Both the position numbers and the translations under genes were made by a program. Below are positions 8,693 to 63,981 of a DNA stretch of 64,000 nucleotides, one piece after another. The number at the start of each line of letters is the position of its first letter. Position 1 is the stretch's first letter. The notes below the pieces were generated by a model. The model saw nothing but the letters and a program-made list of their open reading frames with translations. It was not told where the DNA came from and did no database searches. The stretch comes from Stentor roeselii (taxonomy: Eukaryota; Ciliophora; Heterotrichea; Heterotrichida; Stentoridae): contig RSEH01000008.1 of NCBI GenBank assembly GCA_006503475.1, positions 124,001 to 188,000 of the forward strand. The letters run 5' to 3'.

Positions 8693-9937
8693 TCACTTCG
8701 AATCAAAAACTTCAACAAATTCTGATTGTCCTTTCCCAAACTCAGAAATTCCTCCTTGTTCAATGCGACAATCCACATAAACCACATCATCCTGAATCAA
8801 AGCCGATAAAGATTTTCGAAAGAGTCTCTCTCCATTCGGCAGTTTGACAAGAAAAATTCTTAAAAACTCTAAAAAAACATATTCCAAGTCCATCCCTTTA
8901 AAAACCTTCGCACATTGAATTTCAAAGCAAAGTCCCGAAGGAACCAAAAATGAATTTTTTCTGAAAATTTCCCACAATTTAAGTAAATTTTTAAAAGAAA
9001 CTTGAAAATCATTTCCCAACAGTTCAGGTAAAAAAACAGTAAAAATTTCCTGTTTTTCAGATCGAATTTTCAATAAAGACCTGTGAGATAGAGTTTCGAT
9101 TTGAGCAGAGGCATAAAAGAAAGAGAAAAATCCAGTATCTTGAAGAGAAGTGACTGAAAATAAGTGCTCTAGGTCTAAAGGATGAGGAGACTAATGAAAA
9201 GTTACCTCAAAAAAAGCGACTGAGCTTTCGATGCAAGCATCTTTTAACCAATCTTGAGAATTTTCTGAAATAAGGATTTTTATATCTAGAGTTTTCAGCT
9301 CGTTTTTGAGATGGTGTAAAGAAAACTTTGTCTGAGTATAAATATCGTCTAAGGTCCCTTCATACCCGATCTTCATCGGGTCAAGTTTCTTAACAATTGC
9401 GACTCCACCAGAGTAAAAACTAGAAATGTTGAACCTGCACTGTCCTCTCACAACGATTCCCTGAAAACCTTCAAAAAATTGATCAATCACCACAAAATAC
9501 GGTCTCGGTACAACAATCTCCTGACCCATCACAACAATCATCTGCTCACAAACCCCAAGAAACTTATCAATAACTTCTTGATCATATCTACTACTAAGAA
9601 AAGTCCTAGAAATCCTTAAAAGTGTGAAAATTTCTAGTTTTTCTAAAATCGCTATTTTTTTCCTTAAAGTTTCGCGAAGCTGATCAATTTTTTGATAAAT
9701 ATTTTGAAGTTCTTTCAAAGAAATCTTTCTTTTAATCGCAAGTAAAAAAAGAATCATCAAACTTTTACGAGAATCAGGTAATTTTTCGCAGCTTGCCAAA
9801 AGAAACTGTTCAACGCTTTCAAGTTTTTTAAACCTGAGTATTTTCAAAGGGTCAGAAGAAAAAGTCCCATCCTTAAGCACCATTCTCCCTAAAGGTCCAA
9901 GAGTTTCATTCAAGACAATAAAAAATCTTTGACTCAT
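8693..9937 (-). CDS. Divergent chaperonin-like protein, possibly BBS chaperonin (MKKS/BBS6-like)
   Basis: Two exons, 9937-9206 and 9190-8693, are joined by removing the 15-nt intron at 9191-9205; the product is 409 aa. The N-terminus (TLGPLGRMVLKDG) resembles the ATP-binding start of group II chaperonins (TLGPKG...), and the following helical region and a GQCRFN / YSGGVAI apical-type segment follow the layout of MKKS-like proteins. Canonical GDGTT catalytic motifs are not visible, and the length is below that of CCT subunits (about 550 aa), so ATPase activity is doubtful. If it is a BBS chaperonin it would help assemble the BBSome for ciliary trafficking. The family assignment is tentative; another divergent CCT relative is possible. 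Confidence 0.4.
9191..9205 (-). other. 15-nt intron
   Basis: GTAACTTTTCATTAG on the minus strand. Removing it deletes an in-frame TAG and joins two long frames of the chaperonin-like gene in phase 0. Confidence 0.9.
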
Positions 9938-10006
9938 TATTCCACTTTTAATTCAAATAACTTCATTATTCACTTTTAATTTACTAAACATTCACCATAT
10001 TCAATA

Positions 10007-10945
10007 ATGAACGGTTTCCTCGTTTGCAGCATAATATCTTTGATTATTTACACTTTTCTATACGATTGGACCTTTATCTTCTTGTTCCTCTCATTCTTTT
10101 CAGCTTATCTTCTACTTGAGCGTATTTTTGTTCCAGAATCCGCCAGAAAAATCAACAACCTCCGAAGAAAGCTCGCGATAGCCACCTGGTCAGACCCAGA
10201 CTCTCCTGAATGTCACGGTCACATGAAGGTGAAAATGACTGAAACTCAAGAATACATCGAAAAGTTCTTCCAAGAAACAGGAAAAAGACTGACAATCACA
10301 CAAGTCGTGATCAAAGCTTGCGCCGACGTCTTGGCCGACTATCCTGATATAACTGGAAAGCTTGTATTTGGATACTACGTGCCTTATGAAACTGTTGACA
10401 TCAGTTGTCTTGTCTCTCTCGAACGCGACAAAGACCTCAGCTTTATTTGCTACTCGGATGCGAACAGAAAAACTATGGGACAGATCTGGGATGAAAGTCA
10501 GGAAAAACTTAAAAGTATTCGGACGGGTGATGGGTTAAAAATGCATAAAAAAGCAAGCTCGCCTTTTAAATTGCTTCCTACTGCTTTAGGAGGAATTTTA
10601 ATTGAAATCTGCTCGTTTTTAGCTATTCCTCTTGGAATCGACCTTCCTATGTGGGGAATCAAAAGACATCCGTGTGGAAGTCTTATTATTACTAATGTGG
10701 GAAATCGAGGGTTTGATATTGGATATGCTCCTTTTCCTACTGTTGTCAGGGTTCCTGCTGTTTTTGCACTTTCTTCGATTAAAGTTGAACCAGTTGTTCA
10801 TCAGGGACGTATTGAAACTGCTCAGGTTTTAACGATTTTGTTCACACTTGATCATCGATTTGGTGATGGGACTAGAGCTTTAAAGGCCTTGAACCAGATT
10901 AAGGAAAAATTGGAAAATCCATTTGAAGCTTTTAGTTTTAATTAA
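10007..10945 (+). CDS. Membrane-anchored 2-oxoacid dehydrogenase acyltransferase (E2-type) catalytic domain protein
   Basis: 312 aa. Residues 1-40 are strongly hydrophobic, one long or two short membrane segments. From about residue 70 the protein matches the catalytic domain of E2 acyltransferases: a TITQVVIKACADVLADYP helix, a VDISCLVSLERDKDL strand, and DHRFGDG at 282-288, which fits the catalytic DHRxxDG with His and Asp intact. There is no lipoyl domain and no E1/E3-binding domain, so it is not a normal pyruvate or 2-oxoglutarate dehydrogenase E2. The fold is shared with chloramphenicol and other CoA acyltransferases, so it may be a stand-alone membrane acyltransferase with an unknown acceptor. 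Divergent from the chaperonin-like gene with 69 bp between start codons. Confidence 0.75.
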   Translation: MNGFLVCSIISLIIYTFLYDWTFIFLFLSFFSAYLLLERIFVPESARKINNLRRKLAIATWSDPDSPECHGHMKVKMTETQEYIEKFFQETGKRLTITQVVIKACADVLADYPDITGKLVFGYYVPYETVDISCLVSLERDKDLSFICYSDANRKTMGQIWDESQEKLKSIRTGDGLKMHKKASSPFKLLPTALGGILIEICSFLAIPLGIDLPMWGIKRHPCGSLIITNVGNRGFDIGYAPFPTVVRVPAVFALSSIKVEPVVHQGRIETAQVLTILFTLDHRFGDGTRALKALNQIKEKLENPFEAFSFN

Positions 10946-10985
10946 GTCTTGATTGGTACTCTATTCATTTCTGGTATTTGGAAAT

Positions 10986-12047: not shown

Positions 12048-12149
12048 GATTAATTTAAGTCTTCACAATCATGAATCTCCATAATTTCCCTGATATTGAA
12101 AAATTACCTTCATAATCATTCCACTAAACCCTCTATTATCTATAACCAC

Positions 12150-12939: not shown

Positions 12940-13959
12940 ATGAGCTCTTTCATCAAATGGACCCAGTCAACTATTGACAAATTCGACTTAATCGCTTCGA
13001 AAGCCCTGAACCTGTCAGTTGACGGTGAAAGTGAAGAGGCTGAGTTAGAAATAACGAGATTGAATGAAGAGATCAAAACTATCAAGTCTGTCGCAAATTC
13101 ACAGATGAGAGACTTGAATGAAAAACAAACTGAGGAAGTTAAGAGTAAGAAAAAAGAGTTCTCTTTAATGAGGTCTGAATTGAAAGCACTGACTGAGACG
13201 AATCATGTCTTGAAAGAACATCTTAGGAATGCAGATGGAAAGCTTTCGAGACTTATGAGAGTTAATGAAGAACTGACTTCTAAACTCGACCTCGACCAGG
13301 ACAATCCTGATTTAAACTCCGTTGAAGGCTCTGAGTACCAAATCAATCTTCTTAATGAAAAAATCAAAAGACTTGCAGGGCTGTTAAAAGCTGAAAAACT
13401 CAAAACAGTCGATGCTCTTAACGAAAAAAATCACATTTGTAACTTGATTGAACAGGAAGAAAAAAAAGAACTTGAAAAAATTGAAGAACTTGAAAAAGAA
13501 CTTGATAGTTTAAAGAAAGAATCCGTTGAAATCAAGGAAATGATTGAAAAAAAACCTAGAATTTCGGAAAATTGTCAAAGTTTGAATGAGTTGTCTGATA
13601 AACTGCAAGGAAAACAGAGGATGATTGAAGTTTTGCTTAGTGAGAAGTCGGCTCTTGTCCTTCAGCTTGAAAATGAGGTAAGGGTCAGATAGAAAAATGA
13701 GAAGTTTATGCTCATGGAAAGCAGATTGAAAAATAGGGTCACTAGACAGCCACTTGCTCAGATTAGTCTTTTTGTTGCCAGAAGGCATCTCAGGAGGGTT
13801 GTTGAGTGGGTTGATGATGGGGTCAGAGAGTTTACTGATTTGATGGAGGAGGTCTCGGCTGTTAGACTTGCTGTCGCTGTTTATTTATTCACGGTTCATT
13901 GTTTTTTAATGTTTTGGATGTTTGGTGGTGGGGATTTGAATAGAAATAATAACACATAG
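12940..13959 (+). CDS. Golgin-84-like coiled-coil protein with C-terminal membrane anchor
   Basis: Two exons, 12940-13677 and 13693-13959, with a 15-nt intron at 13678-13692; 334 aa. Residues 30-245 are a nearly continuous acidic/basic coiled coil. The junction region (SDKLQGKQRMIEVLLSEKS, ALVLQLENE, MESRL) follows the conserved end of golgin-84/GOLGA5, and a hydrophobic anchor lies near the C-terminus (AVAVYLFTVHCFLMFWMF) with a short polar tail. Golgin-84 tethers vesicles at the Golgi rim. The protein is shorter than human golgin-84 (about 730 aa) and the assignment rests mainly on the C-terminal third. Without the intron the anchor would be lost. Confidence 0.7.
13678..13692 (+). other. 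15-nt intron
   Basis: GTAAGGGTCAGATAG. Its last three bases form an in-frame TAG; removal joins coiled coil and membrane anchor of the golgin gene. Confidence 0.95.
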
Positions 13960-14993
13960 ATAATCGTTGATAACCCACATAGAATAGATACTTTCTTGCC
14001 AAACATTTAAAGTTTTTAAGTGCATGCTACTCTTGTCCCAAAAACTATCGAAATGATTTTTTATGTTCGTTTGAGATTTTAATCAATGTTTTATTCAATA
14101 AAATTTAATCTCAAATGACCATTTTTAATTATTATTATTTCTAGGCTATAAAATAACTATTATATATCCTAGAAGACATTGTGAAAATGTTGAAAAATAT
14201 TGTATCCAAAAATTAGATATTATTTGTAGAAATTTTAAGGCGAATAAAATTAAAACCCACTTCACAATTTTTTATTTCATCCAGATCAAATCATGAAATA
14301 TGAATATGATCCCTAATTAGGTAAATAAATTTTAACGATTTAATTAGATGATTAGAACTTTTAAGAAATAACTTAAGGATTTTAGAGAAAAACATACAAA
14401 ATAGATATCAGTGGAAAATAGATCAAAATTAAAAAATGACAATCATTTATAGAATTATAGTTGTGGGTTCAAAATAATTTACCTTTTATAAGCTATTTTA
14501 AAGCATTTCTTTATTTTTCAACAGAAATAGTGCTTCATTTATTTGATGAAATTTATAATAATTGTTTTTACCTTGAAACTATAAAAATGAAGAAAATCAG
14601 TATTTTTCAACTACGAAAAAATAAAGGTGGCATTTTCTTAACTTTAAGAGTTTAAATCAATTTATTCATTCCATTATCTTGAGTAAAATTATACATGTTA
14701 TTTGATTAATTGATCTAACTGAAATTTTTAAGGATCTATTGTAAAGATAAATTCTTTATGTTTTAAAATAAATCTAAATATGAATTGATTTTATTATTCC
14801 AATATAATATTTAAATTAAAACATGATTTATTTACTATGTAGTGATATAATGAACATATACTTCTTTCCTAATTGAAAATTTCTTATGTATAAAACTCAC
14901 TAATCATAAAGCATTACTCTTTAATCACACATAATGCCGAAACTTCCAAAAATCAATTCATTTTCTATCGATCAAACAGTCTCTCTTATTATA
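13960..14993. other. AT-rich intergenic region
   Basis: About 1 kb of very AT-rich DNA with many stops in all frames. A 64-codon frame at 14461-14655 opens without an ATG and has no protein-like composition. An ATG at 14934 is in frame with the kinase gene that follows but would add only 20 residues. Confidence 0.6.
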
Positions 14994-17645
14994 ATGGGAA
15001 ACTGTGCTTCACAAAAGCAGTCAAAAAAGCAAAATCAGACAACCCGAATGAATAGAAAGCCAGAAGAAAACACTCCGTCCTCCTCTGTTGACCGAATATC
15101 AGACCTACGTACAAGCCGTCCATCATTCCTAGTCTCTTCAGCACGCCACACAAAAACCCGTTTAAGCATCTTAAACACAGGCGAAGAAGAAGCAAAGCAA
15201 GCTCAAGTTTCAGCCGTGAACAAGAAATCACGAGACACGATCCAAATAAAAAACTACCTCTCAAGTCATTTTTTATTCAAGAGCCTTCCAACAGAAGTGC
15301 TTCGTCAGATAATGGAAGAAATGAAACTTTTCTCATTCAAAGCGAATTCGATAATTTTCGACACAGACAAGGTATCCAAGTATTTTTTCATCATAAAAAA
15401 AGGCCGAGTAGAAATAGTCGTGGACGGCAAAGTGAACGAAATCCTCGAAGCAGGTAAAGGTTTCGGCGAAGTAGCTCTTTTACTAGACGGCAAAAGAACA
15501 TCCCGGGCACGAGCAATCGAAGCCTGTGATCTTTGGTGTCTCTCAAAAGACAGTTACAAGCTTTCAGTCAAGGCGCAGAACATAAAAGTCCATTCAGAAA
15601 ACAAAGAATTTCTTCGAACCCTTCCGTTATTCAACCTTTTAAACGAAAACGACTTGGAAGCCTTGTCAGAAGTTTTAGCCTTTCAGAGTTTCAGCCAATG
15701 CGACGTAATCGTGAATGAAGGGGAACCGGGGGACCTGGCTTACATAATCAAGTCAGGCACGGTAGGCTGTTATATCAACAAAGAAGAAAAAAGACAACTG
15801 GGGCCAGGAGACTTCTTTGGAGAACAGGCTTTGTTGTATGACACTCGCAGGACTGCCACTGTCATCGCGATCAGTCAAGTTGAAGTGCTCAGTCTTGGAA
15901 GAAGGGACCTTTCGAAAGTTTTAGGAGGGCATCTCGAAGCAGTTGTTTATCGGAATTCAGTCAGAATGGCTTTTGATAGAAGTCCAGCTTTTAGTCTTTT
16001 GTTGAATCATCAGATTGAAGCATTGATTGAAAGACTTGATGTCTACAAGTATAACCCTGGAGATGTTGTGGTTGAAAAAGGAACTCTTAAAAAAGTAGAT
16101 GTTTTCATTGTTCTTAATGGAGCACTTGAAGGTGAAGGAAATTATGATGTGTTTCAGTGCATTGGAGATGAAGAACTGCTGAAACCCACTGAAAACGCTT
16201 ATAAGAAAAATATTGTCGCTGCTGAAGGAAGTGTTGTTGGAAAAATCACAAAAGAATCGATTTTCGCTGTGATTGGAGATGATTTTGAAAAAGTTGTTAA
16301 AACTAACAAGTATATTGAAGTGTTGTATAAAGTTCCTTTGTTTAAACACTTGTCTTTTTCCAGGATTGAGTCGATGTTACCCTTTTTCAAGTCGAAAACT
16401 TACAAAAAAGATGAGGTTTTATTCAATCAAGGTGAAGACGGGACGACTTTTTACATCATCACGAAAGGAAGTGCAAGGATTTTAGTTGACAATAAAGAAA
16501 TCAGGACAGTTGGAAAAAATGACTTCTTTGGTGAAAGGTCGATTTTAAAAAATGAAGCAAGAACAGCGACTGTCATCGCTCGGGAAGAGTTGAAATGCGG
16601 AATTATCAGTTCTCATGCCTTTAAGACCATCATGGACGAACCTGTTCGACAGAACCTGGTCAAAAGAATGGAACTTCAAAATGATTCAATTATGCTGACT
16701 GATTTGCAACCGGTCGCTCTTGCTGGAAAGGGACAGTTTGGATCGGTTTTTCTCTGCAAGGATAGAAATAATGTTGAATATGCTCTTAAGTCTATTCCTA
16801 GGGGTATGATCAGTCATTATGATCTGGTTGAAAATTTAATGCTTGAAAGGAAAATTCTGTTACTTCTTGATCATCCGATGATTGTCAAACTTGTAAAAAC
16901 TTTCAAAACTAATAATCGGGTTTGCTTTTTGATGGAGTATGTCAAAGGAATGGACTTATTTGACGTGCTCCGAGCTTTGAATATCTTAAAAGAGCCTGAC
17001 TGTTTATTCTATTCTTGTTGTCTTATTTTAATTTTACAGCACATCCACTCACAAAGCATAATTTACCGTGATCTAAAACCAGAGAATGTAATGGTTGACT
17101 CTGACGGGTACCCAAAACTAGTAGACTTCGGCATATCTAGAATAATAAAAGGCCGTACATATACAATCATCGGCACTCCTCACTACATGGCTCCCGAGGT
17201 GATAACAGGAAAAGGCTACGGAATTCAAGCTGACTACTGGAGCTTAGGAATCATGATCTACGAGTTCATCTACTGCAACGTCCCCTTCGCTCCCAGAGAT
17301 GAAGACCCTTACGCTGTATACGAAAAAATCCTTGAACGAAATCTTTCTTTTCCAGAACAAGTCAGCATTCCAACTGCCAACAAACTTATTCAACAGCTCT
17401 TGTCAACTAACCCGTCTTTAAGGGGAACCATTGAAACTATCAAAGATCATAAATGGTTCAAAGGGATGGCCTGGGAAAAGCTACTTGATAAGATCTTAAC
17501 TCCTCCTTATAAACCTGAAGTCAAACCTCCTAAAAAATGCGACTCGGGAAATCGTGGGATTATTCATTTTCTGGATAGGTATGATATGCAGAATGAGTTT
17601 AGAGGGGAGTATGTTTCGGATAAGAAATGGGAGTTCGAGTTTTAA
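14994..17645 (+). CDS. PKG: cGMP-dependent protein kinase, alveolate type, with four CNB domains
   Basis: 883 aa. I start at the ATG at 14994 because it gives MGNCAS, a good N-myristoylation and palmitoylation signal; an in-frame ATG at 14934 would bury the glycine. Four cyclic-nucleotide-binding domains follow: CNB1 (about 90-205, FGEVALL), CNB2 (210-325, FGEQALLYDTRRTA), CNB3 (335-440, no phosphate-binding cassette, probably dead) and CNB4 (450-560, FGERSILKNEARTA). The kinase domain (about 575-830) has GKGQFGSV, a YALK lysine, YRDLKPEN, DFG and APE, so it should be active, and an AGC-type C-tail. Three working CNBs plus one degenerate CNB match apicomplexan and ciliate PKG. By family it is activated by cGMP and acts at membranes. 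It lies 18 bp before the SZT2-like gene. Confidence 0.92.
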   Translation: MGNCASQKQSKKQNQTTRMNRKPEENTPSSSVDRISDLRTSRPSFLVSSARHTKTRLSILNTGEEEAKQAQVSAVNKKSRDTIQIKNYLSSHFLFKSLPTEVLRQIMEEMKLFSFKANSIIFDTDKVSKYFFIIKKGRVEIVVDGKVNEILEAGKGFGEVALLLDGKRTSRARAIEACDLWCLSKDSYKLSVKAQNIKVHSENKEFLRTLPLFNLLNENDLEALSEVLAFQSFSQCDVIVNEGEPGDLAYIIKSGTVGCYINKEEKRQLGPGDFFGEQALLYDTRRTATVIAISQVEVLSLGRRDLSKVLGGHLEAVVYRNSVRMAFDRSPAFSLLLNHQIEALIERLDVYKYNPGDVVVEKGTLKKVDVFIVLNGALEGEGNYDVFQCIGDEELLKPTENAYKKNIVAAEGSVVGKITKESIFAVIGDDFEKVVKTNKYIEVLYKVPLFKHLSFSRIESMLPFFKSKTYKKDEVLFNQGEDGTTFYIITKGSARILVDNKEIRTVGKNDFFGERSILKNEARTATVIAREELKCGIISSHAFKTIMDEPVRQNLVKRMELQNDSIMLTDLQPVALAGKGQFGSVFLCKDRNNVEYALKSIPRGMISHYDLVENLMLERKILLLLDHPMIVKLVKTFKTNNRVCFLMEYVKGMDLFDVLRALNILKEPDCLFYSCCLILILQHIHSQSIIYRDLKPENVMVDSDGYPKLVDFGISRIIKGRTYTIIGTPHYMAPEVITGKGYGIQADYWSLGIMIYEFIYCNVPFAPRDEDPYAVYEKILERNLSFPEQVSIPTANKLIQQLLSTNPSLRGTIETIKDHKWFKGMAWEKLLDKILTPPYKPEVKPPKKCDSGNRGIIHFLDRYDMQNEFRGEYVSDKKWEFEF

Positions 17646-17663: not shown

Positions 17664-20600
17664 ATGTCAAAACAATCATGCCCCTACAAGCCTCATGATT
17701 TCCTAAACGCCAAGAAATCCTACATCCTCTCATCAGGTTACACAAGCGAGATAAATTTTTCAAACCAGAAGTGCGTGATAATGATAGACCTAACCCCAAG
17801 CATGTACTCCTACCATTCAGGTCTGAAAGACGTGATATACAATCGAATCCTTCCAACACTAAAGTCATTCATAAAGTCCCTCTACGACCTAAAACTCGAT
17901 TTAGAAGTATCAGTGATTTGCACACGAATGGCAAGAGCACCTTTACACGTGATCGTCCATTCCTTCAAAGTCCTTCCATCAGGAGACTACCACGACCTAT
18001 TAATTCGAGTAAAGTTCGCATTAGTCAATCTTCACCTCATCTCTTCCAGCTTAAAAGACGAAGGACGTAACATAAAATTCAACACTGTACTTAAATGGAG
18101 CCTTTTCGCCCTCGAAATGATGGAAAAAGAGCGTCTTCCTTCAGTAGTCCTCATCACGAATACAGTGAATAGTTTCGTAAGTTCAGCGATTTATGATGGT
18201 CTTCTTATGCAGTACTGTGCCAATGAAGTCTCTTTCAACGTCATCGCCCTGTGCAAGGAAAGCGGCCTTCGCTTTGGCCTGCATTCGGACTACCTGTGTT
18301 TAAAAGACGCGACTTTAACAACAGGTGGACAGTTCCTATGGGCTGAGCAGGTGCAAGAAAAAACTTCAGAGATTTTTACGAGAAAACTTTGTGAAAGTGA
18401 AAAAATTTCAAATCTTTCAAAGACTTTGATCCAAGAGTACTCAATTGCCATCTCATTTGAAGACCTGCTTCTTTGTCGCCTCCGAGAAGGCTTTCTTCTT
18501 TCTCAAACAGGAGAAGCCACTGTGCTGGTCCTTCACTGCGGGAACGACACAAGCATTGAGTACCATTTAAAGACTGCCTCTAATATTTGCTTTGTTCAGA
18601 TCTTCATCACCGGCTGCGAGGGACTCGCAGCTAAAGTAAAGGAAAGACTAAAAACGAAAACTGTCAACATCAAAGACACAGAGCCGAGCTTTCCTGAAAG
18701 AATTTCTTGGATACTCGCGAATATCACTGAAACTGAAAATTTTGCTGTTTATTTGGAACAGGTGCTAAGCAAGAAGTCGTCTCCTAACAAGCTCATCACC
18801 ACGAATCTTAACATCTGGCATCGTTGGATGAACGTCGAAAGACTCGATATCATCATCGCCAAGACCAACAACGAGTTCGCATTGACCCAGGGCAGGAAAA
18901 AGTTGATTGAAGGTCTTCAGAAAATGTTTAAAAGTTGTGAAAATGACTCTTTTATTGATGTTCAAAGTGATACCTTGGTTCTAGGAAAAGTTATCTGGGA
19001 AGGGGTGAATAAAGCTGTTTTGTTTATTGCGAGTTATGGCGAAAATGAGGGAAAAATTTCAGAAATTGTGAATTTTTGTAAGAAACTTTTGGGAATTGAT
19101 GTGTTTACAAAACCTTTGGGGAGGATGATTGTTGAAAGTATCTCGACTAGTAAGAACTACAGCTCGAACCCGGTGCAATCAGCGCAGACTTACAAGCCAC
19201 ATATAGAGGCGTTAAAAGCTTATCTTTTAAGAAAAACAAGCAAATTTCGACTTCTAAACAGTTCCTGGTACCCTCATTTTTTAACCCTTTTACAAGATAC
19301 AACAGTGAAGGAAGGTTTTTTTTTCATTGGAAACTGTCCGAATGGGAAGAGTTTGTTGATAAAGACTTTGAAATTAAAAGAAAGAGATCAACCGATTTTT
19401 CTTCAGTTTTTGTTGTTTTTGAGTTCGAATGAAGTGATCACCGAGTTCTACATCGACCCGCAGGTGATCAATGATGAGGACTGCTGGACTGAGTCGTTGA
19501 GGACCTTGGACCGTCTGCATGATTTCGTGTTTAAGTCACTTTCCGCTCTGGACTACCTGATTTTTCGCTGTTTAAGAAAAAAACTCGACGATGAAGACTA
19601 CTGCGCCGAAGACGACTCGGGTGAAAAAGTTTTCAAACTTTCTACAAGTGATGATATTTTTTGTTATACTGAAAATTCTTACCTTTCTTATAAAGCTAAT
19701 AAAAAAGCTATCAGAAAAAACATGCTGAAAGTTCTAGAAAAGTACGAATCCTTCCATGTTGACCCTCCGAAAGTCTCAGTTTTGATAAAACATTCAAATT
19801 ACAGCAGTTATCGATTTGAAAATTTCATTCCAGACACTGATCCAGTCAAGATACGACAGGTAAAATCTGAATTTTATACAAATCTCGTCTCAGCCTTTAC
19901 AGAAATCAGTGATTATCACTCAATAGAGCAGAAAATCCATTATTTTGTCAGGTACTTAAATGAAGAATCTCTGATTTTATGGGTTTTACCGTCTTTCGAA
20001 GTCTTTTTACTCAAACTTTCTCAGTACTTCAGCATGAATTTGTATGAATGTTCTTTAAAACGCATCGATGCAAGCAACACTGAACCAGTGAAGCCTCGTG
20101 AAAAGCAGTCTTCAGCAGTGGTTTCAAAGACTTTAACTTTAATTCAAAGAGTTTACAACTCAGCTTACAACGTCACTTTTTGCAAGATGTTTCAAGAAGT
20201 GCAGAACAGTGAAAGCGCTTTGACAACAGTGATAAAAAATTGCATTGTCGAGTATTCAGACATCGACTCTTCTGGTATCTTTAGAATGATTCGAAAGACT
20301 TGGACTGACGCTTCAGGTCTTTCTGAGTCGGTCATTGACAGGTGCTTGACGCTTTTATCAGATGACTTTTCATTGATGGACAAGGAGTTTATTGAGGAGA
20401 TTGACCGACTGTTTATAAGGATCGGGAAAACAAATTTGTATATTTTTAAAGATACGTCTTTTGGAGTTTTTCTCAAGTTTGGAAGATTTTCAAATAAACT
20501 CTCTCATTGCTTGAATGGCCCGAAAGTCACTTTTGAATTGTTTTCATGTGTTAAAAATCATTTTTTTGCAAAGGAAGTCGCTGCTTTAAAAAAAATTGAA

Positions 20601-24749: not shown

Positions 24750-25247
24750 TTAAACAAGGTCGGAAATTTCTAAACGGTCTTGAAATGTCGCATCGATCAA
24801 TCTCGCGACTTTGCAATGTCCTCCGCTTAGTGCCAGGTCACTTGGTGTCTGACCTTTCTGAATTTTTTTTACGATGTTTTTGAGCTTTTTGGCTTCTGAT
24901 GTTGGAAGCAATGCTTCTACTGTTTTGTAATGACCTCGGCAAGCTGCAAGGTGTAGAGGTGTTTCATTGTGCTGAATAGGTCATACTTTGTCAACTGAAT
25001 CAGTATCCAGGCCAAGTTTAATCAGTTCAAGGCAAAGTTGGGAGTTTCCATACCAACTAGCCAGATGTAGTAAATTCCAATGATTCTAACTGTTTCTTAC
25101 TTCTGACACTGAATATTTATCGTAATTTGGAATACTTTTGATCAAAGGGATAACTTCTGGAGATCCTTGCTGGATCAATTGAACCATAACACACATATCA
25201 GGGGAATCTAGTTTCGAGAACTTGTTTGATGAAGTCATGGAGCCCAT
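24750..25247 (-). CDS. Ankyrin-repeat protein, three exons
   Basis: Exons 25247-25101, 25085-24987 and 24971-24750 join in phase 0 after removal of two 15-nt introns, giving 155 aa. No single frame is long, so the gene is easily missed. The middle and last exons carry ankyrin repeats: WNLLHLASWYGNSQ followed by ELIKLG, then ETPLHLAACRGHYKTVEALL, then QTPSDLALSGGHCKVARLI. The N-terminal 30 residues have no recognised domain. Ankyrin repeats mediate protein binding; the partner is unknown. The stop lies 81 bp from the convergent stop of the SZT2-like gene. An upstream alternative ATG at 25260 meets a stop after 20 codons and was rejected. Confidence 0.85.
24972..24986 (-). other. 15-nt intron
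   Basis: GTATGACCTATTCAG on the minus strand, second intron of the ankyrin gene. It contains an in-frame TGA and interrupts between repeats. Confidence 0.9.
25086..25100 (-). other. 15-nt intron
   Basis: GTAAGAAACAGTTAG on the minus strand, first intron of the ankyrin gene; ends in an in-frame TAG. Confidence 0.9.
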
Positions 25248-25556: not shown

Positions 25557-26636
25557 ATGGACCGGTTAAAAGTAATAAAGTCCCACCTGAGCCCATTGAT
25601 AAACCCAAAAGAGTTCAATTCTGTGATTTTTTTAACAATAAACCGGCCAAAGACTCTGAATTCCTTCAACTTCGAGATAGTACTGACAATAATTTCCTAC
25701 ATGGAAAAGGCGCGTGTGTCAAAATCCCACATAATTGTGACAGGCGAGGCCAAAAAGTACCTAGGCTCAGGTGGTGACCTGGTGTTGACAACAGAGAAAA
25801 TTCAAGAAATTCCTGAGTTCATGCGTTGTTTGCACCACATGTTTTACCTGACATCAAAGGTGAAATCAATAAGTTTATGGACTGGGTACGTCATCGGCGC
25901 ATCTGCAGGACTTGCCTGTTCTTCAGTCACGAAAGTCGCTTTTCCCAGTTCTAAGTACTTGATGCCTGAAACTGAAATTGGCCTCTTTCCGAATGTTGGA
26001 GGTTCTTACTTCTTATCACATCATCTGCCTCAACATATAGGACTCTATTTGGGCCTCACGGGGCATACTTTGAAAGGAGCTGATTGCTTTTTATATGGAC
26101 TTTGCCAGTTCTTTGTACTTGATGAAGACTATGACGCCCTTGTAAATGAACTTTTCTTAGGAAATCCTTTGAAAACATTGGAAAAATTTCATCGAGAACC
26201 TCTTTGGCGTAAGACTTAAATAGAATGGTCTGAACTTAAAAATTTTGAAGATGAAATTCGTGAGAATTTCCTGGGAAAGAAAAACGTTGAAGAAATTTTT
26301 AAAAGTTTACAACAAAAAACAACACCCTGGGCTGTTAAAACTTTAAAAAAACTAGAAAAAAGATGCCCATTATCTCTTAAAGTTGCTTTTAAAGCGTTTT
26401 ACTCAGCTGCTAAGAAAACCTTTCGAGAGTCTCTTGAAATGGAATTTTCGATTGAACTGTCGATGATGATTCACTATCGTTATAATTTCCTGAATGGAGT
26501 TCGAGCCAAGCTGATGAAAAAAGAGTTCCAGGACTGGATACCTGCATATTTAGAAGACATCACAGAAGAAATGCTAGAAGAACTTTTCAACAATCGTGAC
26601 GGTCTAAAGCTAGATTTGAGATTTTTAGATGACTAG
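25557..26636 (+). CDS. HIBCH: 3-hydroxyisobutyryl-CoA hydrolase / enoyl-CoA hydratase family
   Basis: Exons 25557-26208 and 26224-26636 with a 15-nt intron at 26209-26223 give 354 aa, close to human HIBCH (386). The crotonase fold is clear: FLTINRPKTLNSFNFEIV at the start, a LGSGGDL oxyanion-hole segment, then SLWTGYVIGASAGLA (usually MDGITMGGGVGLS), MPETEIGLFPNVGGSYFLS and LGLTGHTLKGAD. The LFPNVGGSYFLS stretch and the long C-terminal half are typical of HIBCH and its plant CHY1 relatives rather than short-chain hydratases. HIBCH acts in mitochondrial or peroxisomal valine breakdown. No obvious targeting peptide is visible. Without the intron the enzyme would lose its C-terminal third. Confidence 0.88.
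26209..26223 (+). other. 15-nt intron
   Basis: GTAAGACTTAAATAG, phase 1, contains an in-frame TAA and restores the C-terminal part of the HIBCH frame. Confidence 0.95.
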
Positions 26637-40534: not shown

Positions 40535-41596
40535 ATGGCAGACTCTGAGAGTCAAAATGGAATCAAAGGAAAAGTTGAATTTGAAGTCTTATGGGCCTTG
40601 GCTGGTGTTTATTCTTTACTTATGACTGTTTCTTTAGTGTTTTTTATAAGAACAGTCGTGGTTCCTAACTGTTCAGCGATTTTTCGTCAGAGGTTTTATC
40701 ATGGAAGTATGGTTTTAACGAGTGGTGGTAAGAATTAAATAGTGAGGGTTGTTTGGATTGTTTTATATACTTCTGATGCTGGGGGTAGACAAGTTCAAGA
40801 GCTTTTTGATGCACTTCCCAATATTTTAATGTGCTTTCTGGCCTCGACGATTACTTTATTATGGTATGAAATCTACTTAAGCTCCAGTCTTTTGATTTCT
40901 CCGCAGTCAAAATACCATCGATTTTTACTCTCTATTATTTTCTTTATAGTTGTGAATATCACTTCTATTACTTTTACTTTTCTTATTCTTTTTGATTCAG
41001 GAGGTAGTTGGGATTCTTTAAATAACAAGTTCAAAAATTTTACAATTTTGGACTCGGTTACAAATGTTTTGAATTCGACTGGAATGATTTTTTCTGGAGT
41101 TCTTTTGTCGAAAAATGCGAAACTTGTGTTTTATGGACGTGTTGGAGAGATGGTGTCTCGGAGGATCAACAGTATTTCTGTGTTCGCTTCGATTATGTTT
41201 ATTGGAAAAACTGTTGTTTTGCTTGTTAGTCTCGCGTATCAGTCTTTATTAGGGGAGCAGAGGTCAGATATTGAGTAGGGGTTATTTAGTGTCTTGATGA
41301 TCTTTGTTTACTTCTTTTTTCTTGAGATTATTCCTATGAGTGTCATTATTTTTATCATTCAGAAGACTAGTCAGAGTACGAGTGAGGATTCGTTGCCTAG
41401 TGCTTTTAATAGCTTTGTTACTGGACATTTGGGAAGCTTGGAAGCTGCGAATAATTTGGTTTCTAGACTTTTTAGCTTACCTCATCAAAATTTTGCTGCT
41501 TTTGAAACCTTGAAACATCCTAATTCACTTCCTTTGAGAATTAATCATGAAGAAAATATTGAAGAAAAAAAGAGATTACATTCTTTATTCGTGTAG
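40535..41596 (+). CDS. Seven-TM protein of the THH1/TOM1/TOM3 (GPR137-like) type
   Basis: Three exons, 40535-40727, 40743-41274 and 41290-41596, joined by removal of two 15-nt introns; 343 aa. Seven hydrophobic segments are visible, starting with LWALAGVYSLLMTVSLVFF. RQRFYHGSMVLTSGVRVVW, then a WYEIYLSSSL stretch after the third segment, and GRVGEMVSRRINSI before the sixth, resemble plant TOM1/TOM3 and animal GPR137 proteins, which sit on vacuolar or lysosomal membranes. The C-terminal tail is Ser-rich. The family call rests on topology and loose motifs, so another 7TM family is possible. Confidence 0.65.
40728..40742 (+). other. 15-nt intron
   Basis: GTAAGAATTAAATAG, phase 1, first intron of the 7TM gene; it contains an in-frame TAA and links membrane segments 1 and 2. 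Confidence 0.95.
41275..41289 (+). other. 15-nt intron
   Basis: GTAGGGGTTATTTAG, phase 2, second intron of the 7TM gene; contains an in-frame TAG. Its fourth base is G, unlike most of the set. Confidence 0.9.
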
Positions 41597-41807: not shown

Positions 41808-43091
41808 CTAATTTACTCTCAGGGCATCATACTGTCCAGATTTCACTGATTCCCTATAAGCTTTCTTCTTTTTATAAATAATCAAAAGGATAACAAACGA
41901 TGCAAGAACAACACTAACAGTGCAAACAACTACAACAATAACAACCCAAGCTTCAGCAGAGTTATCATCAGAGTCATCATTATTAACGCTTTTCATGAAC
42001 CCTATCCTTTCCTCTTCATAATCCCAAAGCGAGTAATACTTCCTCAAAAAGATCTGTCCAAGAATCCACCTATTTTGATGAGTTCCATAAATATGAATAG
42101 TGCAAATTTCATGATGCTTCTCCACAAACCACTTGGCACTCAAATCATAGTCAATTCCATCCATAACAAAAGTAATATCTCTGAAATTCTCATAATCATT
42201 ACAATGACACTTGTATTCTCCGTCATCAGTATAACAAAGATGTCTAATTCTAATCAACCCTCTGATTCTCTCAACAACGGCATTAGGTCCATATAAGTAC
42301 TTACTGCCCGGGTCGATAATAACATCAAAGTTCTGCAAAAAGTTGTAAGAAGAAAATCTGACTTCAGACAGTTCCAAGTACCAATGCTGTGATTCTTTCT
42401 CAACATCATGATAATGAAAACTATCCCCTGAATGTTGAGCGTATTTATCTTTATCATGTCCTCCAAAAATAATACTACTTTTTTTTTTCTGTGATTTTTC
42501 ATCTCTAAAGCCGACATTGCTGAGATAAAGTGAAAAAATCGCTTTTTCAATAACTTTTTGCGATTTTAGCCAAGTGACAATTCTAGAGCCGGAGATTTCT
42601 GAATCAGAAAAGCCTAAGCCGAGGACTCCACCTGACTGGAAATCAGAGCAGTTACAATAAGAAGCTAGGAGAAATTTAAAATTTTGAGTAGTGACTGGGC
42701 TATCGTCGCCAATTGTTAAAGTTTCTGAACAGTATTGCCCGTCAATGTCGTTGTCATCTCTGAACTACTGGGATTTTACTTCAATGGCTCCGGTGATGTT
42801 TAGAGGAATGAATGACGATGATAAGGACGGGTTGAAATATTTCGAAGCATCGCATGAACTGCCGATTTTTGGCACTGTTGTTGACTGATTGAAGATTACT
42901 GTCGTCCAGGTGGAGATAAAGACTCGGAATGACTGAGGAGGGGAGCCTAGTGAGAGACTTGTGTAATATGCCTCGTTGTCATCATTGTCTGAATAGGATC
43001 TGGGCTCGGAAGATAGTGGGAGAGTTATTTGCTTAGATGATGACGGATGCGCAATGGCTAACAAGAATATTCCGGATAATAAACCTTGCAT
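41808..43091 (-). CDS. Membrane-anchored pepsin-like protein lacking the first catalytic Asp (pseudoprotease)
   Basis: Exons 43091-42780 and 42764-41808 join across a 15-nt intron to give 422 aa. A signal peptide is followed by a two-lobed pepsin fold: YYTSLSLGSPPQSFRVFI, GGVLGLGFSD, SIIFGGHDKDKY, HWYLELSEVRF and WILGQIFLRKYYSLWD. The first active-site motif, normally DTGSS, reads STWTT, with Ser60 in place of Asp. The second reads DPGS with Asp255 kept. A membrane segment at about 376-400 and a short basic tail follow. With one of two Asp lost it should not cleave peptides and may bind ligands. BACE-like and plant nepenthesin relatives share the anchored layout. Confidence 0.85.
42765..42779 (-). 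other. 15-nt intron
   Basis: GTAAAATCCCAGTAG on the minus strand; in phase 0, ends in an in-frame TAG, joins the two lobes of the pepsin-like protein. Confidence 0.9.
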
Positions 43092-48245: not shown

Positions 48246-49298
48246 ATGCTAATTAAAAAAGCTTTTACATACTGGCAAGGAAACAACAAATTCATCTTCT
48301 CAGGGAAGGTCCTTCTCGGGTAATCAATATTCAGTCCAGACTACCCAAAAGCTCTAATAACAATGACAATAATCCTACTATCATCCTCATCATTCCTCGG
48401 AACAGTATGCATAAGATTCCCAGTCTGGATATCAATCCTAAGCATCTTCCTAACACTAACAACTCTCTTTCTTCTTCTAAAAACAGGAACAACAGACCCA
48501 GGTTACATCTTAAGACAAGAGTATCCCTTCACATCAGGTCCATCAGGGTGTCCAACGATTTACTCAGCGCTTGTGTCAGACCCAACAAAAGCAGCAGCAA
48601 TCGAGACTCAGTACTTCGAAAGCATCGTCTGTGGAAGTCGGGCAAAGCTAAAATACTGCAGAACTTGTTGGATCGCCCGGCCTCCTCGGACTTCTCATTG
48701 TCCTGATTGTGACTTGTGTGTTGAGCAGTTTGACCATCACTGCCCTTGGATTGGAATTTGTATTGGAAAGTACAACTATGTTTATTATTTCGCTTTTCTT
48801 TCTGTTACTGTAACTTTACTTTTGTTTAACCTTGGAGTTTGTCTTGTTGATATCGGGTTTTTTGCTCAGGGTGAAGGGAAGGGTGGAGAAGAGGTTATGA
48901 AAAGAGCTGGAGCTAGTATTTTTTTAGGGCTTTTTATTATTGTGATGCTTTTTTTTGTTGCTGGGTTGTTTTTTTTTCATGTTTATTTGATTGCGATTGG
49001 ACTTACCACTAATGAAGCGATGAAGAAGTCTTTTGGAAAAATGGAGATGCAGCCTTATGATAGGAGGTCTTTTTGGAAAAACTTGAGATTTAGAAGTAAC
49101 TTTAAAAAACTTTGGAAGTTTAATGCACAGGAAGATATTAGACCTGGAAGTAAAGAGATTTGTGTTTTTGCTCATTCGACGAGAGCTCTTGTTAGGTTTG
49201 GAGTTCCTACTGAACTGGACCAGAGGAATGGGTCGAATAAATTTGATAGGGATGATATTTCGGAAACTCCTTCAATTTTGCATGATATTATTAAATAG
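48246..49298 (+). CDS. DHHC palmitoyltransferase
   Basis: Exon 48246-48319 and exon 48335-49298 join across a 15-nt intron at 48320-48334; 345 aa. The first exon supplies the typical cytosolic start (NNKFIFSGKVLLGPDYPK). The Cys-rich domain reads CPDCDLCVEQFDHHCPWIG, with DHHC at about residues 158-161, preceded by CRTCWIARPPRTSHC. Four membrane segments are visible and a TTNEAMK segment (usually TTNE) follows the third. The enzyme attaches palmitate to cysteines; possible substrates in this window include the MGNC-type PKG, but no link is shown. Confidence 0.95.
48320..48334 (+). other. 15-nt intron
   Basis: GTAATCAATATTCAG, phase 2; includes an in-frame TAA; joins the start of the DHHC enzyme (LLG|PDY) to its membrane domain. 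Confidence 0.95.
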
Positions 49299-50145: not shown

Positions 50146-51825
50146 ATGGACGAAGACATTGCGATCCATGTGGTAATTTTCATCTAGAACGACTCCCACG
50201 TCCAAGCAGATTTGGGTTTAGTGCATATGAAGATCCAAGAAACCGTCCAAATCTTGACGAACTTCAAATCTTCAGGTCAGACTCGCTCGCGCTCGTCGTT
50301 TATTGAGGAGCTGGTCGATTTGATAGTGACTTACTACGAGTACAACAGGGAACTCGCTGAGTACTTCACTAGTTTGTTTCCTCCTGCCGAACTTCTCAGC
50401 TTTTTGGAGTCCAGTCAGGCACCCAGGCCTCTGGTCATCAGGACTAACTCTATGAAGGCCAAGAGAAGAGAACTTGCTCAGCAACTTATTCAGAAAGGAG
50501 TAAATCTTGACCCGGCTGGTGAATGGAATAAGGTTGGATTGAAAATTATTGAAAGTCAGGTACCTATTGGAGCTACTACTGAGTATTTGGCTGGAATGTA
50601 TATGTTGCAGTCTGCTAGCTCTTTTTTACCTGTTATGGCTTTGGCTCCTAAACCTGGTGAAAGGGTTCTTGATTTGTGTGCAGCTCCCGGAGGAAAAACA
50701 ACTCACATCGGCCAGCTGATGAAAAACTCAGGAGTAATAGTTGCAAACGAGTTCAAAGAAGACCGTTGCGCTTCAATAAAAGGAAACATCCACCGAATGG
50801 GTTTAACAAACGTAGTAATAACCAACTACGACGGTAGAAAAATCAGCAGTCATCTAAACGGCTTCGACCGCGCATTAGTCGATGCGCCTTGCTCAGGTCT
50901 AGGAGTGATCTGGAAGGACCCCTCAGTGAAAAGTCTAAGAACCTTGAAAGACATAAAGAGAAACGCTCATGTTCAGAAGGAACTTCTTCTTTCCGCAATT
51001 GACGTGGTGAACGCGAGAAGTAAAACAGGAGGATTTATTGTTTATTCAACTTGCAGTATTTCAGTTGAGGAGAATGAGGAAGTCGTTCATTACGCTTTGA
51101 AAAATAGGAGAGTTAAACTTGTGGAAACTGGATTGCAAATTGGAGAACCTGGACTTCATAAGTTTAAAGGAAAAATTTTTCATCCAAGTCTTGCTCTTTG
51201 CAAAAGGATTTATCCGCATGTTTATAATATGGAAGGCTTTTTCATTGCTAAGTTCAAGAAAATTGATAATGATGTACCTGACATGGCTTCTAAACCCCAT
51301 ACTGGAGAAAAAAGAGAGAAAAAGTCGAAGGGTAAGAAGAAGGAAATTGAAATCGATGAGGATCACGGTGGGAGTCAAGAGATTGAAGAGAAAATTGAAG
51401 AAGTTCAGGAAGAGGATGTCATGATCAAGGATATTAAAGAAATGTTTCATAGGAAAGGAAAAGATAAGAAATTCAAAAAAGAGGAAGGTGAGGAAGAACA
51501 GGTAGAGGTTAAAAAGAATAAAGGGAAGAGGAAAAATGAGAAGGGAAAAAATGATGAGATTGAAGAGAAGAAGGAAAAAATGAACATAAAAAATTCAGAT
51601 GGGAATAAGAAAAAATCAGGAAATAAAAGTGGAGGAAATCTCGATGTATTGAAGGGTTCTGTTGATCAAAATCAAGCTAAACAAAAAGAAAAAGTGAAGG
51701 AAAATCAAGCCTCAAAATCTGAAACAAAAACAAAAGGAAAAATTGAAGAAGTCGACTTACCCAAAAAAAGAAATTCATCTAACGATCAACCAAAACAAAA
51801 GAAATCAAAATTAGATAAATCTTAA
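50146..51825 (+). CDS. NOP2: NOP2/NSUN-family rRNA m5C methyltransferase
   Basis: Exon 1 is only 27 bp (50146-50172, nine codons); after a 15-nt intron at 50173-50187 exon 2 runs to 51825. 554 aa. The core contains VIRTNSMKAKRRELAQQL, LAGMYMLQSASSFLPVMAL, motif I VLDLCAAPGGKTTHIGQLM, motif IV DAPCSGLG near residue 241 and motif VI YSTCSIS near 296; both catalytic cysteines are present. The last 170 residues are Lys/Glu-rich and low complexity. NOP2 methylates 25S/28S rRNA in the nucleolus and is needed for 60S assembly. Confidence 0.94.
50173..50187 (+). other. 15-nt intron after a nine-codon first exon
   Basis: GTAATTTTCATCTAG, phase 0; ends in an in-frame TAG. Without it the NOP2 frame would have to start at a later ATG. 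Confidence 0.9.
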
Positions 51826-56151: not shown

Positions 56152-56268
56152 TGTTTTTGTATTATTGAATTTTAATAATTAAATAAAAAATCTTAGAAAA
56201 CCCTTCAAATCCAATCTTTTAAACAATATCTAAAAACTATCATATCTTCCTCCTCATATCTAATAAAT

Positions 56269-62441: not shown

Positions 62442-62655
62442 CTTAGATATTTCAGATTTAGTTAAGCCACAGACTTCTTGATTATTAGCAAAACATGAAT
62501 AAACAATCATATCAGTTGAAACTATTAAAATTTCCCTATATCGATAATTTACAATAAAAAATTCAAGTCTCAAAAAACTTTCAAACCGAAAAATAATTTC
62601 TCATTTTCCCCCTTCTTCAAAAAAACCCATCAACATCAAATTCTTCAAAATAAAA

Positions 62656-63981
62656 ATGAGTGTATTAGGAGGATTCTTCAGTACAAAGTCCCAATGCCAC
62701 AACTGCACCACAAAACTAAGATTCAAAAAACTTCGAAAATGTTTAATATGCAGTACTTAAAACATAGAAAATCTATTCTGCAACGATTGCAGTTTAAAAG
62801 ACAACCAATCAACCTTCGATTTTCTCTCTCCAAAGCGATACTGTTACAACTGTTACACAGAAATGGACCACAGCAAAGACCGTCTTTACCAAAAGTTCAT
62901 TTCCTCAGAATCCTCATCAAATCCTCCCATCACTTCGCCAAACCCTTCGGAAAAATCATTCATTCCAATATCCCAATTACTCGAAAACCCTGAAATCCTC
63001 AACAACTGCGAACCTCAACTAATCCCAGTTCTCGAATCTTCAAAACCCTCAGAATTTCCTTTACCTTCTCAAGATACAATTCAAAAAAATCTAGAAAACC
63101 TTCAAATAATAAACGAAAACCCTGACATCTTCTACGAATTCATCAGAATTATCGGAGAAGGAGGTTCTGGAAGTGTGTTTTTAGTTCGTCAAAAACAAAC
63201 AGGAAATAATTTCGCCTTAAAAAGAATTTTGATAAAGTCTTCTCGTATCCAGTCACAGATATTAAATGAAATTTCTCTGACGAGTTTAAGTGCAAATGAG
63301 AATGTTGTTCGTTATTTTGAGTCTTACTCGCATTCGGGTTATCTTTGGATCGTTGTAGAGCTGATGTCAGGAAGTTTGACTGATTTAGTGATGGACAAAG
63401 CAGGGCAGATCCCTGAAGAACTAATGTCTTATATATTAAAAGAGATAATCAAAGGACTTGCGAGTCTTCATTCACAGCATCGGATTCACAGAGATATAAA
63501 AAGTGACAATATTTTAGTTTCTCTTGAAGGAGATGTGAAATTAAGTGACTTTGGGTACTCAGCTCAACTTACCTCTGAGCAGGACTCAAGGGCGACTGTT
63601 GTTGGGACTCCTTGTTGGATGGCTCCTGAACTTGTCACTGGAAATCGATATGATGTTAAAGTTGATTTATGGTCTTTGGGAATTGTTGCTTTGGAAATTG
63701 CTGATGGTGAACCACCTTTGTTAAGGGAAAATCCGATGAAAGCACTTTATGTTATTGCCACTTCTGGACCACCTAAACTTAGAAATCAGGAAAAGTGGAG
63801 TCAGGAGTTTAGAAGTTTTGTTGAAGGTTGTCTTGTTAAGGATCCTTGTTCACGTTTGAGTTCTGAGGAACTTTTACAACATCCGTTTATAGTTAATTGC
63901 CCTGGGAATGGAAAAGAATTGTTTAAAGAGTTTTTAGTTCAGTGGAAGGATAGGAAGAGGAAGCAGGGAGTAAATAGTTAG
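62656..63981 (+). CDS. STE20/PAK-type kinase with N-terminal FYVE-like zinc finger
   Basis: Exon 62656-62752 and exon 62768-63981 join across a 15-nt intron at 62753-62767 (phase 1); 436 aa. The spliced N-terminus has four CxxC pairs (CHNC, CLIC, CNDC, CYNC) at about residues 14-62, the spacing of a FYVE/PHD-like finger, without the basic RHHC patch of true FYVE domains. A disordered linker follows. The kinase domain has GEGGSGSV (about 162-169), FALKRI, HRDIKSDN (273-280), DFGYSAQL and GTPCWMAPE, as in PAK/MST kinases, and looks active. Without the intron the finger is lost. Confidence 0.9.
62753..62767 (+). other. 15-nt intron
   Basis: GTACTTAAAACATAG, phase 1; includes an in-frame TAA; joins the two halves of the zinc finger of the STE20 kinase. 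Confidence 0.92.

What the first reader, a model, noticed from the sequence alone, without database searches (positions are those of the whole stretch)
9191..62767. Eleven introns, every one exactly 15 nt
Introns at 9191, 13678, 24972, 25086, 26209, 40728, 41275, 42765, 48320, 50173 and 62753 (lowest coordinates) are all 15 nt, all start GTA and end AG, and each contains a stop in the reading frame or restores a domain. Nine have A at position 10 and two at position 11, a likely branch point only five or six bases from the 3' end. That leaves almost no room for normal spliceosome contacts. Uniform 15-nt introns are known from Stentor, which also identifies the organism.
Basis: partly seen in the sequence, partly recalled or inferred. 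Interest (0 to 1): 0.8.

Follow-up and report, generated by a model that had tools for sequence, protein, structure and literature searches.

The report
Fifteen-letter introns in a heterotrich ciliate
The eleven 15-base gene interruptions are very probably real introns, among the shortest known, but this is a published trait of heterotrich ciliates such as Stentor and Blepharisma rather than a new system.

Summary
All eleven 15-mers are at the stated coordinates, GTA...AG on the gene's sense strand, A10 in nine and A11 in two. A gene finder told only "GT...AG, any length 10-60" puts 10 of 27 introns at exactly 15 nt in 248 kb; six decoy dinucleotide pairs put 1 of 134 there. With 15 nt favoured it recovers 9 of the 11; the other two join exons of a THH1/TOM1-like membrane protein and of a FYVE-like zinc finger. 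Over the 44.4-Mb genome one consensus occurs 242 times at 15-nt spacing, against 31, 17 and 15 at 14, 16 and 18 nt. U1, U2 and U6 snRNAs with normal recognition sequences are present. So these are major-spliceosome introns held to 15 nt. That is already published: S. coeruleus 92.8% 15 nt and 7.2% 16 nt with A10; Blepharisma likewise. "Identifies Stentor" is too strong: code and telomere fit a heterotrich other than Blepharisma, the species is open. Additions: a likely stop-free twelfth intron (24858-24872), GTG/GTC/GTT donors outside the window, no clear 16-nt class, and a U2 pairing that fits A10 only with a shifted bulge. No RNA reads were available.

The parts
9191..9205 (-). 15-nt intron GTAACTTTTCATTAG, phase 0, A at 11; unassigned gene 8693-9937 (409 aa spliced)
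   Evidence: Found by the length-unbiased decoder; in-frame stop removed; no Pfam match
13678..13692 (+). 15-nt intron GTAAGGGTCAGATAG, phase 0, A10; unassigned gene 12940-13959
   Evidence: Recovered with 15 favoured; seven longer GT-AG choices also keep the ORF open; only a below-cut-off Pfam match
24972..24986 (-). 15-nt intron GTATGACCTATTCAG, phase 0, A10; ankyrin-repeat gene 24750-25238
   Evidence: Ank_2 score 87.3 spliced, 78.7 retained
25086..25100 (-). 15-nt intron GTAAGAAACAGTTAG, phase 0, A10; same ankyrin gene
   Evidence: Ank_2 87.3 spliced, 84.5 retained
24858..24872 (-). Candidate twelfth intron, GTAAAAAAAATTCAG, phase 0, A10, no in-frame stop; same ankyrin gene
   Evidence: Listed; removal brings the TP-to-TP ankyrin spacing from 38 to 33 residues, designed ankyrin proteins in the PDB align with a 5-residue gap there, Ank_2 87.3 to 89.2 and Ank_5 37.3 to 42.4, Ank and Ank_3 within 0.2. 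Moderate support
26209..26223 (+). 15-nt intron GTAAGACTTAAATAG, phase 1, A10; 3-hydroxyisobutyryl-CoA hydrolase-like gene 25557-26636
   Evidence: ECH_2 match 25-339 spans the junction at residue 217; score not lower when retained (221.5 against 221.2)
40728..40742 (+). 15-nt intron GTAAGAATTAAATAG, phase 1, A10; THH1/TOM1/TOM3-like membrane protein 40535-41596
   Evidence: THH1 score 26.5 spliced, 19.8 retained
41275..41289 (+). 15-nt intron GTAGGGGTTATTTAG, phase 2, A10; same membrane protein
   Evidence: Not recovered by the decoder; joins two ORFs into one protein with a THH1 match 18-269 over both junctions; 26.5 spliced, 25.4 retained
42765..42779 (-). 15-nt intron GTAAAATCCCAGTAG, phase 0, A at 11; pepsin-like gene 41808-43091
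   Evidence: Asp domain 171.3 spliced, 161.8 retained; continuous alignment to gastricsin over the junction
48320..48334 (+). 15-nt intron GTAATCAATATTCAG, phase 2, A10; DHHC palmitoyltransferase gene 48246-49298
   Evidence: the only GT-AG pair of 10-60 nt that keeps the ORF open; upstream of the DHHC match
50173..50187 (+). 15-nt intron GTAATTTTCATCTAG, phase 0, A10; RsmB/F-type RNA methyltransferase gene 50146-51825
   Evidence: short first exon of 9 codons from ATG; upstream of the domain
62753..62767 (+). 15-nt intron GTACTTAAAACATAG, phase 1, A10; FYVE-like zinc finger plus protein kinase gene 62656-63981
   Evidence: Not recovered by the decoder; spliced protein has a below-cut-off FYVE match 11-66 (22.5 bits, cut-off 27.8) over the junction at 32, match lost when retained

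Best explanation
These are ordinary major-spliceosome (U2-type) GT-AG introns of a heterotrich ciliate, held to a fixed length of 15 nt. U1 and then U6 read the first six bases (GTAAG-like), U2 reads the short stretch around Y8-T9 so that A10 (rarely A11) is the branch adenosine, and the 3' splice site is the AG that ends five bases downstream; the product would be a 10-nt lariat loop with a 5-nt tail. The scarcity of consensus sites at 14, 16 or 18 nt suggests that the machinery works as a length ruler: donor and branch point must sit side by side in the catalytic core. Because 15 is a multiple of three, a retained intron is detectable by translation only if it holds a stop in its frame, and the consensus tends to supply one (TAG at the 3' end in phase 0, TAA from GTAA in phase 2). 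Shown: sequence, length specificity, domain restoration, snRNAs. Inferred: splicing itself, the branch point, lariat geometry, ruler and surveillance.
For: Sites verified. Length-unbiased decoder peak at 15 nt, 10 of 27 against 1 of 134 decoys. With 15 favoured 22 of 28, against 7 of 58 over four decoy pairs, and 17 of 89 when 12, 14, 16, 18 or 21 nt is favoured for GT-AG. Independent set: 13 introns outside the window chosen without using A10 or T9 have A10 in 12 and T9 in 11. Whole genome: 242 sites at 15 nt against 31, 17, 15 at 14, 16, 18. Looser pattern: 52 of the first 100 listed matches (of 2800) are 15 nt. Domain scores fall at 6 of 7 sites when the 15 nt are kept. U1 ACUUACCU, U2 GUAGUA and U6 ACAGAGA intact. 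U1-complementary bases at intron positions 1-6: 4.4 in 24 introns against 3.0 in 1477 random GT-N11-AG.
Against: No RNA data, so no junction has been seen. Domain scores do not discriminate at 26209, and change only by 1 to 3 bits at 25086 and 41275; the FYVE match at 62753 is below its cut-off. Four sites (9191, 13678, 48320, 50173) lie outside any matched domain. Frame alone allows longer introns at 10 of 11 sites. The reversed-pattern control of the genome counts exceeds the real off-length counts (51 to 82 against 15 to 31), so the spacings themselves are the control. With the textbook register (bulge at A10, base 9 paired to U2's U) U2 pairing in the introns is no better than in random sequence (2.50 against 2.62 of 6); it is better with a shifted bulge at 10 (3.46 against 2.67) or a bulge at 11 (3.79 against 3.11, and shifted 2.88 against 2.24), six registers having been tried. 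Introns without stops can hardly be counted here, so 'fixed at 15' rests on detectable ones plus pattern counts.
Confidence: 0.96

Rival explanations
1. Stop-codon reassignment or readthrough: the 15 nt are coding and the stops inside are read as amino acids, as in many ciliates.
For: Ciliates often reassign stops; 15 is a multiple of three, so reading through keeps the frame; at 26209 the domain score is no worse with the 15 nt kept.
Against: Under the standard code the decoder ends 51, 32 and 19 of 102 genes on TAA, TAG and TGA; that use is built in, but the codons after these stops score 0.07, 0.08 and 0.14 bits each against 0.34 for coding sequence. A reassigned codon would not sit inside GT...AG units of one length, 242 against 15-31 at other spacings. 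Six of seven junction-domain scores fall when the 15 nt are kept, and the FYVE match is lost.
Confidence: 0.01
2. The 15-mers are short germline inserts (IES-like) left in the assembly and removed as DNA, not RNA.
For: Ciliates delete short DNA inserts during macronuclear development, often between TA repeats (recalled), and 9 of the 11 units hold TA at 2-3 and again at 13-14.
Against: A TA-to-TA deletion would take out 11 nt and shift the frame, whereas removal of all 15 restores it. The units are always GT...AG on the sense strand of the gene, whichever strand that is, and fit U1 better than random. No DNA reads were available for a direct test.
Confidence: 0.02
3. The true introns are longer GT-AG units that happen to contain these 15-mers.
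For: At 10 of 11 sites 1 to 7 longer pairs also keep the ORF open.
Against: The length histogram peaks at 15 without being told, and the 15-nt spacing is enriched across the genome.
Confidence: 0.01

Closest known systems
Stentor coeruleus 15/16-nt introns (PMC9505925; parts 1-3 of 6 of the text read)
   Same: 15 nt, GT-AG, A10 as putative branch point, standard code, U1 ACUUACCU, U2 GUAGUA and U6 ACAGAGA conserved, Cwc25 N-terminus without the Gly-Gly-Gly motif
   Different: There 7.19% of 8806 introns are 16 nt, here no clear excess of 16-nt sites is seen (17, against 15 at 18 nt and 31 at 14 nt); intron A+T 75.6% there, 68.9% here; the Isy1 N-terminus is called non-conserved there, here Isy1 aligns with the worm protein from residue 11 and with the human one from 33
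Blepharisma stoltei 15/16-bp introns (PMC9942806; passages)
   Same: Predominantly 15 and 16 bp introns, CCCTAACA telomere repeat, compact genome of similar size (41 Mbp)
   Different: UGA encodes tryptophan there; here TGA behaves as a stop
Loxodes magnus introns (PMC11441545; passages)
   Same: Very short introns in the sister group of heterotrichs
   Different: Mean 19.3 bp, mode 17, under 16 bp negligible, 3n lengths depleted; here the one dominant length is a multiple of three

Membership tests
Heterotrich 15/16-nt spliceosomal introns | Dominant length 15 nt | tested here: met
Heterotrich 15/16-nt spliceosomal introns | GT...AG ends on the sense strand | tested here: met
   11 of 11 in the window; decoy end pairs show no 15-nt peak. 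For the 13 outside the window GT...AG was imposed
Heterotrich 15/16-nt spliceosomal introns | Conserved A at position 10 of 15-nt introns | tested here: met
   9 of 11 and, independently, 12 of 13; random GT-N11-AG 31%
Heterotrich 15/16-nt spliceosomal introns | Minor class of 16 nt with A11 | tested here: inconclusive
   17 genome-wide sites at 16 nt, 15 at 18 nt, 31 at 14 nt; at the S. coeruleus ratio about 12 extra expected, P 0.02 to 0.0006 by background chosen, one consensus only. Against absence: the flat decoder gave one 16-nt call, and favouring 16 nt gave 6 of 20 for GT-AG against 2 to 4 for decoys
Heterotrich 15/16-nt spliceosomal introns | Major-spliceosome snRNAs present | tested here: met
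   U1, U2, U6 over Rfam cut-offs, one match each; U4 and U5 not searched genome-wide
Heterotrich 15/16-nt spliceosomal introns | Minor spliceosome absent | not tested
   U11, U12, U4atac and U6atac were not searched genome-wide
Heterotrich 15/16-nt spliceosomal introns | Spliced in RNA | not testable with these tools
   No RNA reads on hand
Genus Stentor | Standard genetic code | tested here: met
   Long ORFs under table 1; sequence after TAA, TAG and TGA gene ends lacks coding character (gene ends were called under the standard code); shared with Climacostomum
Genus Stentor | Phylogenetic position by rRNA or proteins | not testable with these tools
   The one 18S search failed and I found no ciliate reference collection among the tools
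Class Heterotrichea | Telomere repeat CCCTAACA | tested here: met
   TGTTAGGG array at 1 of 19 contig ends read, the C175 end; repeat named for Blepharisma

The most novel reading that the evidence does not exclude
This heterotrich has a single-length intron system: the 16-nt class of its relatives is gone and the spliceosome accepts only a donor-to-branch distance of 10 nt, with A10 bulged in a U2 register shifted by one base from the textbook one, so that the U1/U6 helix and the branch helix lie end to end with no linker.
Probability: 0.2. Interest if true: 0.5.

Novelty: already known. Interest (0 to 1): 0.25.

Why it matters
Fifteen nucleotides is at or near the lower limit for spliceosomal introns, so such genomes test how much intron the spliceosome needs. 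This assembly gives a data set in which length, donor and branch position can be measured together. A genome with only 15-nt introns would be cleaner than one with 15 and 16 for asking what sets the length. It also warns annotators that stop-free 15-nt introns can hide inside open frames as five extra residues.

Tried and rejected
A first codon-score scan with strict thresholds found only two 15-nt sites and was dropped as too insensitive. A cruder ORF-extension count gave 6 at 15 nt but also 4 at 16, 6 at 34 and 5 at 40 nt, so no clear peak. The test for avoidance of intron-like 15-mers in coding sequence was inconclusive: GTAA...A..YAG at 15 nt occurs 8 times in sense exons (5.7 expected from synonymous shuffles, 6 antisense), and 14, 16, 17 and 18 nt give 1, 0, 1, 0; the wider GTA form gives 8 at 15 nt against 13.8 expected, but 14, 16, 17 and 18 nt are low as well. 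One of the eight (L007) looks like a real intron at a predicted gene end. Selection for in-frame stops cannot be tested here: 23 of 24 pooled introns hold one, but detection favours that. 42885-42899 in the pepsin-like gene (GTAATCTTCAATCAG) is undecided: removal changes Asp by +2.0 and TAXi_N by -3.2 bits. A kinase candidate in L024 (2731-2745) is undecided too: Pkinase 178.3 to 177.5, PK_Tyr_Ser-Thr 115.3 to 118. A 16-nt call at 34328-34343 under a 15/16 prior lies in an unbroken ORF and was rejected. The reversed-pattern control of the genome search is poor (51 to 82 against 15 to 31 real off-length sites; 4761 against 2800 for the looser pattern), so off-length spacings were used instead. 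Organism naming by 18S failed, and paper searches for other heterotrich genomes named no match for this assembly (listings only).
Full report
OBSERVATION. All are GTA...AG on the sense strand; A is at position 10 in nine and 11 in two. In each the unspliced frame meets a stop inside the 15 nt.

IS IT CHANCE? I wrote a two-strand gene decoder with dicodon scores learnt from long ORFs of the window and other pieces of the same genome (248 kb in all). Given only "GT...AG, 10-60 nt, all lengths equal" it predicted 27 introns, of which 10 are exactly 15 nt and no other length has more than 2. Six decoy dinucleotide pairs gave 134 predictions with 1 at 15 (Fisher 3e-8). With 15 favoured, 22 of 28 GT-AG predictions were 15 nt; four decoy pairs (GT-AC, GA-AG, CT-AG, AG-GT) gave 7 of 58, and favouring 12, 14, 16, 18 or 21 nt gave 17 of 89 for GT-AG.

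HOMOLOGY. Of nine spliced proteins, six have clear Pfam families; a seventh, the THH1/TOM1/TOM3 match (26.5 bits, cut-off 25), is marginal, one has only a below-cut-off match and one has none. Matches run over or next to the junctions in five genes, covering seven introns. Keeping the 15 nt (X for the stop) changes the score of the domain at the junction thus: Ank_2 87.3 to 78.7 (24972) and 84.5 (25086); THH1/TOM1/TOM3 26.5 to 19.8 (40728) and 25.4 (41275); Asp 171.3 to 161.8 (42765); FYVE 22.5 (itself below the cut-off of 27.8) to no match (62753); ECH_2 221.2 to 221.5 (26209), that is, no discrimination. PDB alignments run through the junctions at 26209 and 42765. Sites 9191, 13678, 48320 and 50173 lie outside matched domains and rest on frame and consensus. 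Frame alone is weak: at 10 of 11 sites other GT-AG pairs of up to 60 nt also work, though 15 is always the shortest.

WHOLE GENOME. The window is part of C522 of a 44,391,514-base assembly in 522 contigs. Counting GTAAG-N(k)-TAANTAG over all of it gives 31 (14 nt), 242 (15 nt), 17 (16 nt) and 15 (18 nt). A looser pattern, GTAA-N(3-8)-TANNTAG, has 2800 matches; of the first 100 listed, 10, 52, 6, 8, 7 and 17 are 14 to 19 nt. The tool's own reversed-pattern control is higher than the real off-length counts, so I compare spacings with each other.

CONSENSUS. Thirteen introns outside the window, chosen with only GT...AG and length 15, have A10 in 12, T9 in 11, A4 in 12 and Y13 in 12; random GT-N11-AG has A10 in 31%.

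HIDDEN INTRONS. A 15-nt intron without an in-frame stop leaves the frame open and is all but invisible to a reader. Scanning coding sequence for the consensus turned up GTAAAAAAAATTCAG at 24858-24872 in the ankyrin gene. Its removal brings the TP-to-TP spacing from 38 to 33 residues, the same 33 as in the repeat before it; designed ankyrin proteins in the PDB align with a five-residue gap there; Ank_2, Ank_5 and Ank_4 scores rise by 1.9, 5.1 and 2.2 bits while Ank and Ank_3 move by 0.2. I call it a probable twelfth intron.

MACHINERY. U1, U2 and U6 are present, one match each, with ACUUACCU, GUAGUA and ACAGAGA intact. Of the branching factors, Cwc25 begins MGLAFLN, without the Gly2-Gly3-Gly4 of the human protein (named in PMC9505925; the PDB alignment starts at residue 6), as reported for S. 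coeruleus. Isy1 aligns with worm isy-1 from residue 11 and with human ISY1 from 33, so its N-terminal helix is less divergent than the paper's wording for S. coeruleus would suggest. U1-type complementarity is 4.4 of 6 bases against 3.0 in random. U2 pairing is at chance if A10 is bulged in the textbook register, and above chance if U9 pairs with the A of GUAGUA and A10 is bulged next to it, or if 11 is bulged (six registers tried, 24 introns). I read this as a one-base shift of the bulge, a suggestion only.

ORGANISM. Telomere repeats TGTTAGGG end contig C175 (1 of 19 ends read), the CCCTAACA repeat named for Blepharisma. Under the standard code the decoder ends 51, 32 and 19 of 102 genes of at least 150 codons on TAA, TAG and TGA; the use of TGA is built into that, but the codons after the TGAs score 0.14 bits each against 0.34 for coding sequence and 0.07-0.08 after TAA and TAG, so TGA looks like a stop and Blepharisma is unlikely. 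Stentor and Climacostomum use the standard code. Intron A+T is 68.9% against 75.63% published for S. coeruleus (P 0.002, 24 introns), and the assembly is smaller than the 83 Mb I recall for that species. I conclude a heterotrich, perhaps a Stentor, probably not the published S. coeruleus assembly.

KNOWN OR NEW. Already known as a kind: PMC9505925 (8806 introns, 92.81% 15 nt, 7.19% 16 nt, A10; first three of six parts read), PMC9942806 (Blepharisma; passages), PMC11441545 (about 95% 15 bp, rest 16; passages). The original paper (Slabodnick 2017) is not held. What could be new is the lack of a 16-nt class: 17 sites, where about 28 to 35 would be expected at the S. coeruleus ratio, with one consensus only. 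Against it, the flat decoder called one 16-nt intron, and favouring 16 nt gave 6 of 20 for GT-AG where decoys gave 2 to 4.

MECHANISM AND LENGTH. Other ciliates avoid 3n introns or load them with stops (PMC5014332, passages). Here the dominant length is 3n, and the consensus itself supplies stops: TAG at the 3' end in phase 0 and TAA from GTAA in phase 2. That such stops are selected for is inference and could not be tested. Nine of the eleven units also hold TA at both ends, as IESs would, but a TA-to-TA deletion takes 11 nt and would not restore the frame.

Noticed in passing
window 41808-43091 (-): The pepsin-like protein lacks both catalytic motifs: STW where family members have DTG, and DPG at the second site (motifs recalled; alignment), so it is probably a pseudo-protease; its C-terminus looks like a membrane anchor.
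   Followed up: partly
window 42885-42899 (-): A consensus-like, stop-free 15-mer (GTAATCTTCAATCAG) in the same gene; Pfam scores do not decide whether it is an intron.
   Followed up: partly
window 17664-24668 (+): An intronless ORF of 2334 residues with no Pfam match at 1e-5.
   Followed up: no
window 14934-17645 (+): Kinase with three matched cyclic-nucleotide-binding stretches, a PKG-like layout.
   Followed up: no
window 1-6228 (-): N-terminal 2076 residues of a dynein heavy chain in one open frame.
   Followed up: no
L007 9232-9246 (+): A predicted gene ends on the TAG of GTAAGAATTATTTAG; splicing it extends the frame by 85 residues.
   Followed up: partly
genome-wide, 14-nt pattern: 31 sites at 14-nt spacing, above the 15 and 17 at 18 and 16 nt, though its reversed control is higher too (82 against 57-59); two lie 2 kb apart on C239 and two 124 bases apart on C284. 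Not examined.
   Followed up: no
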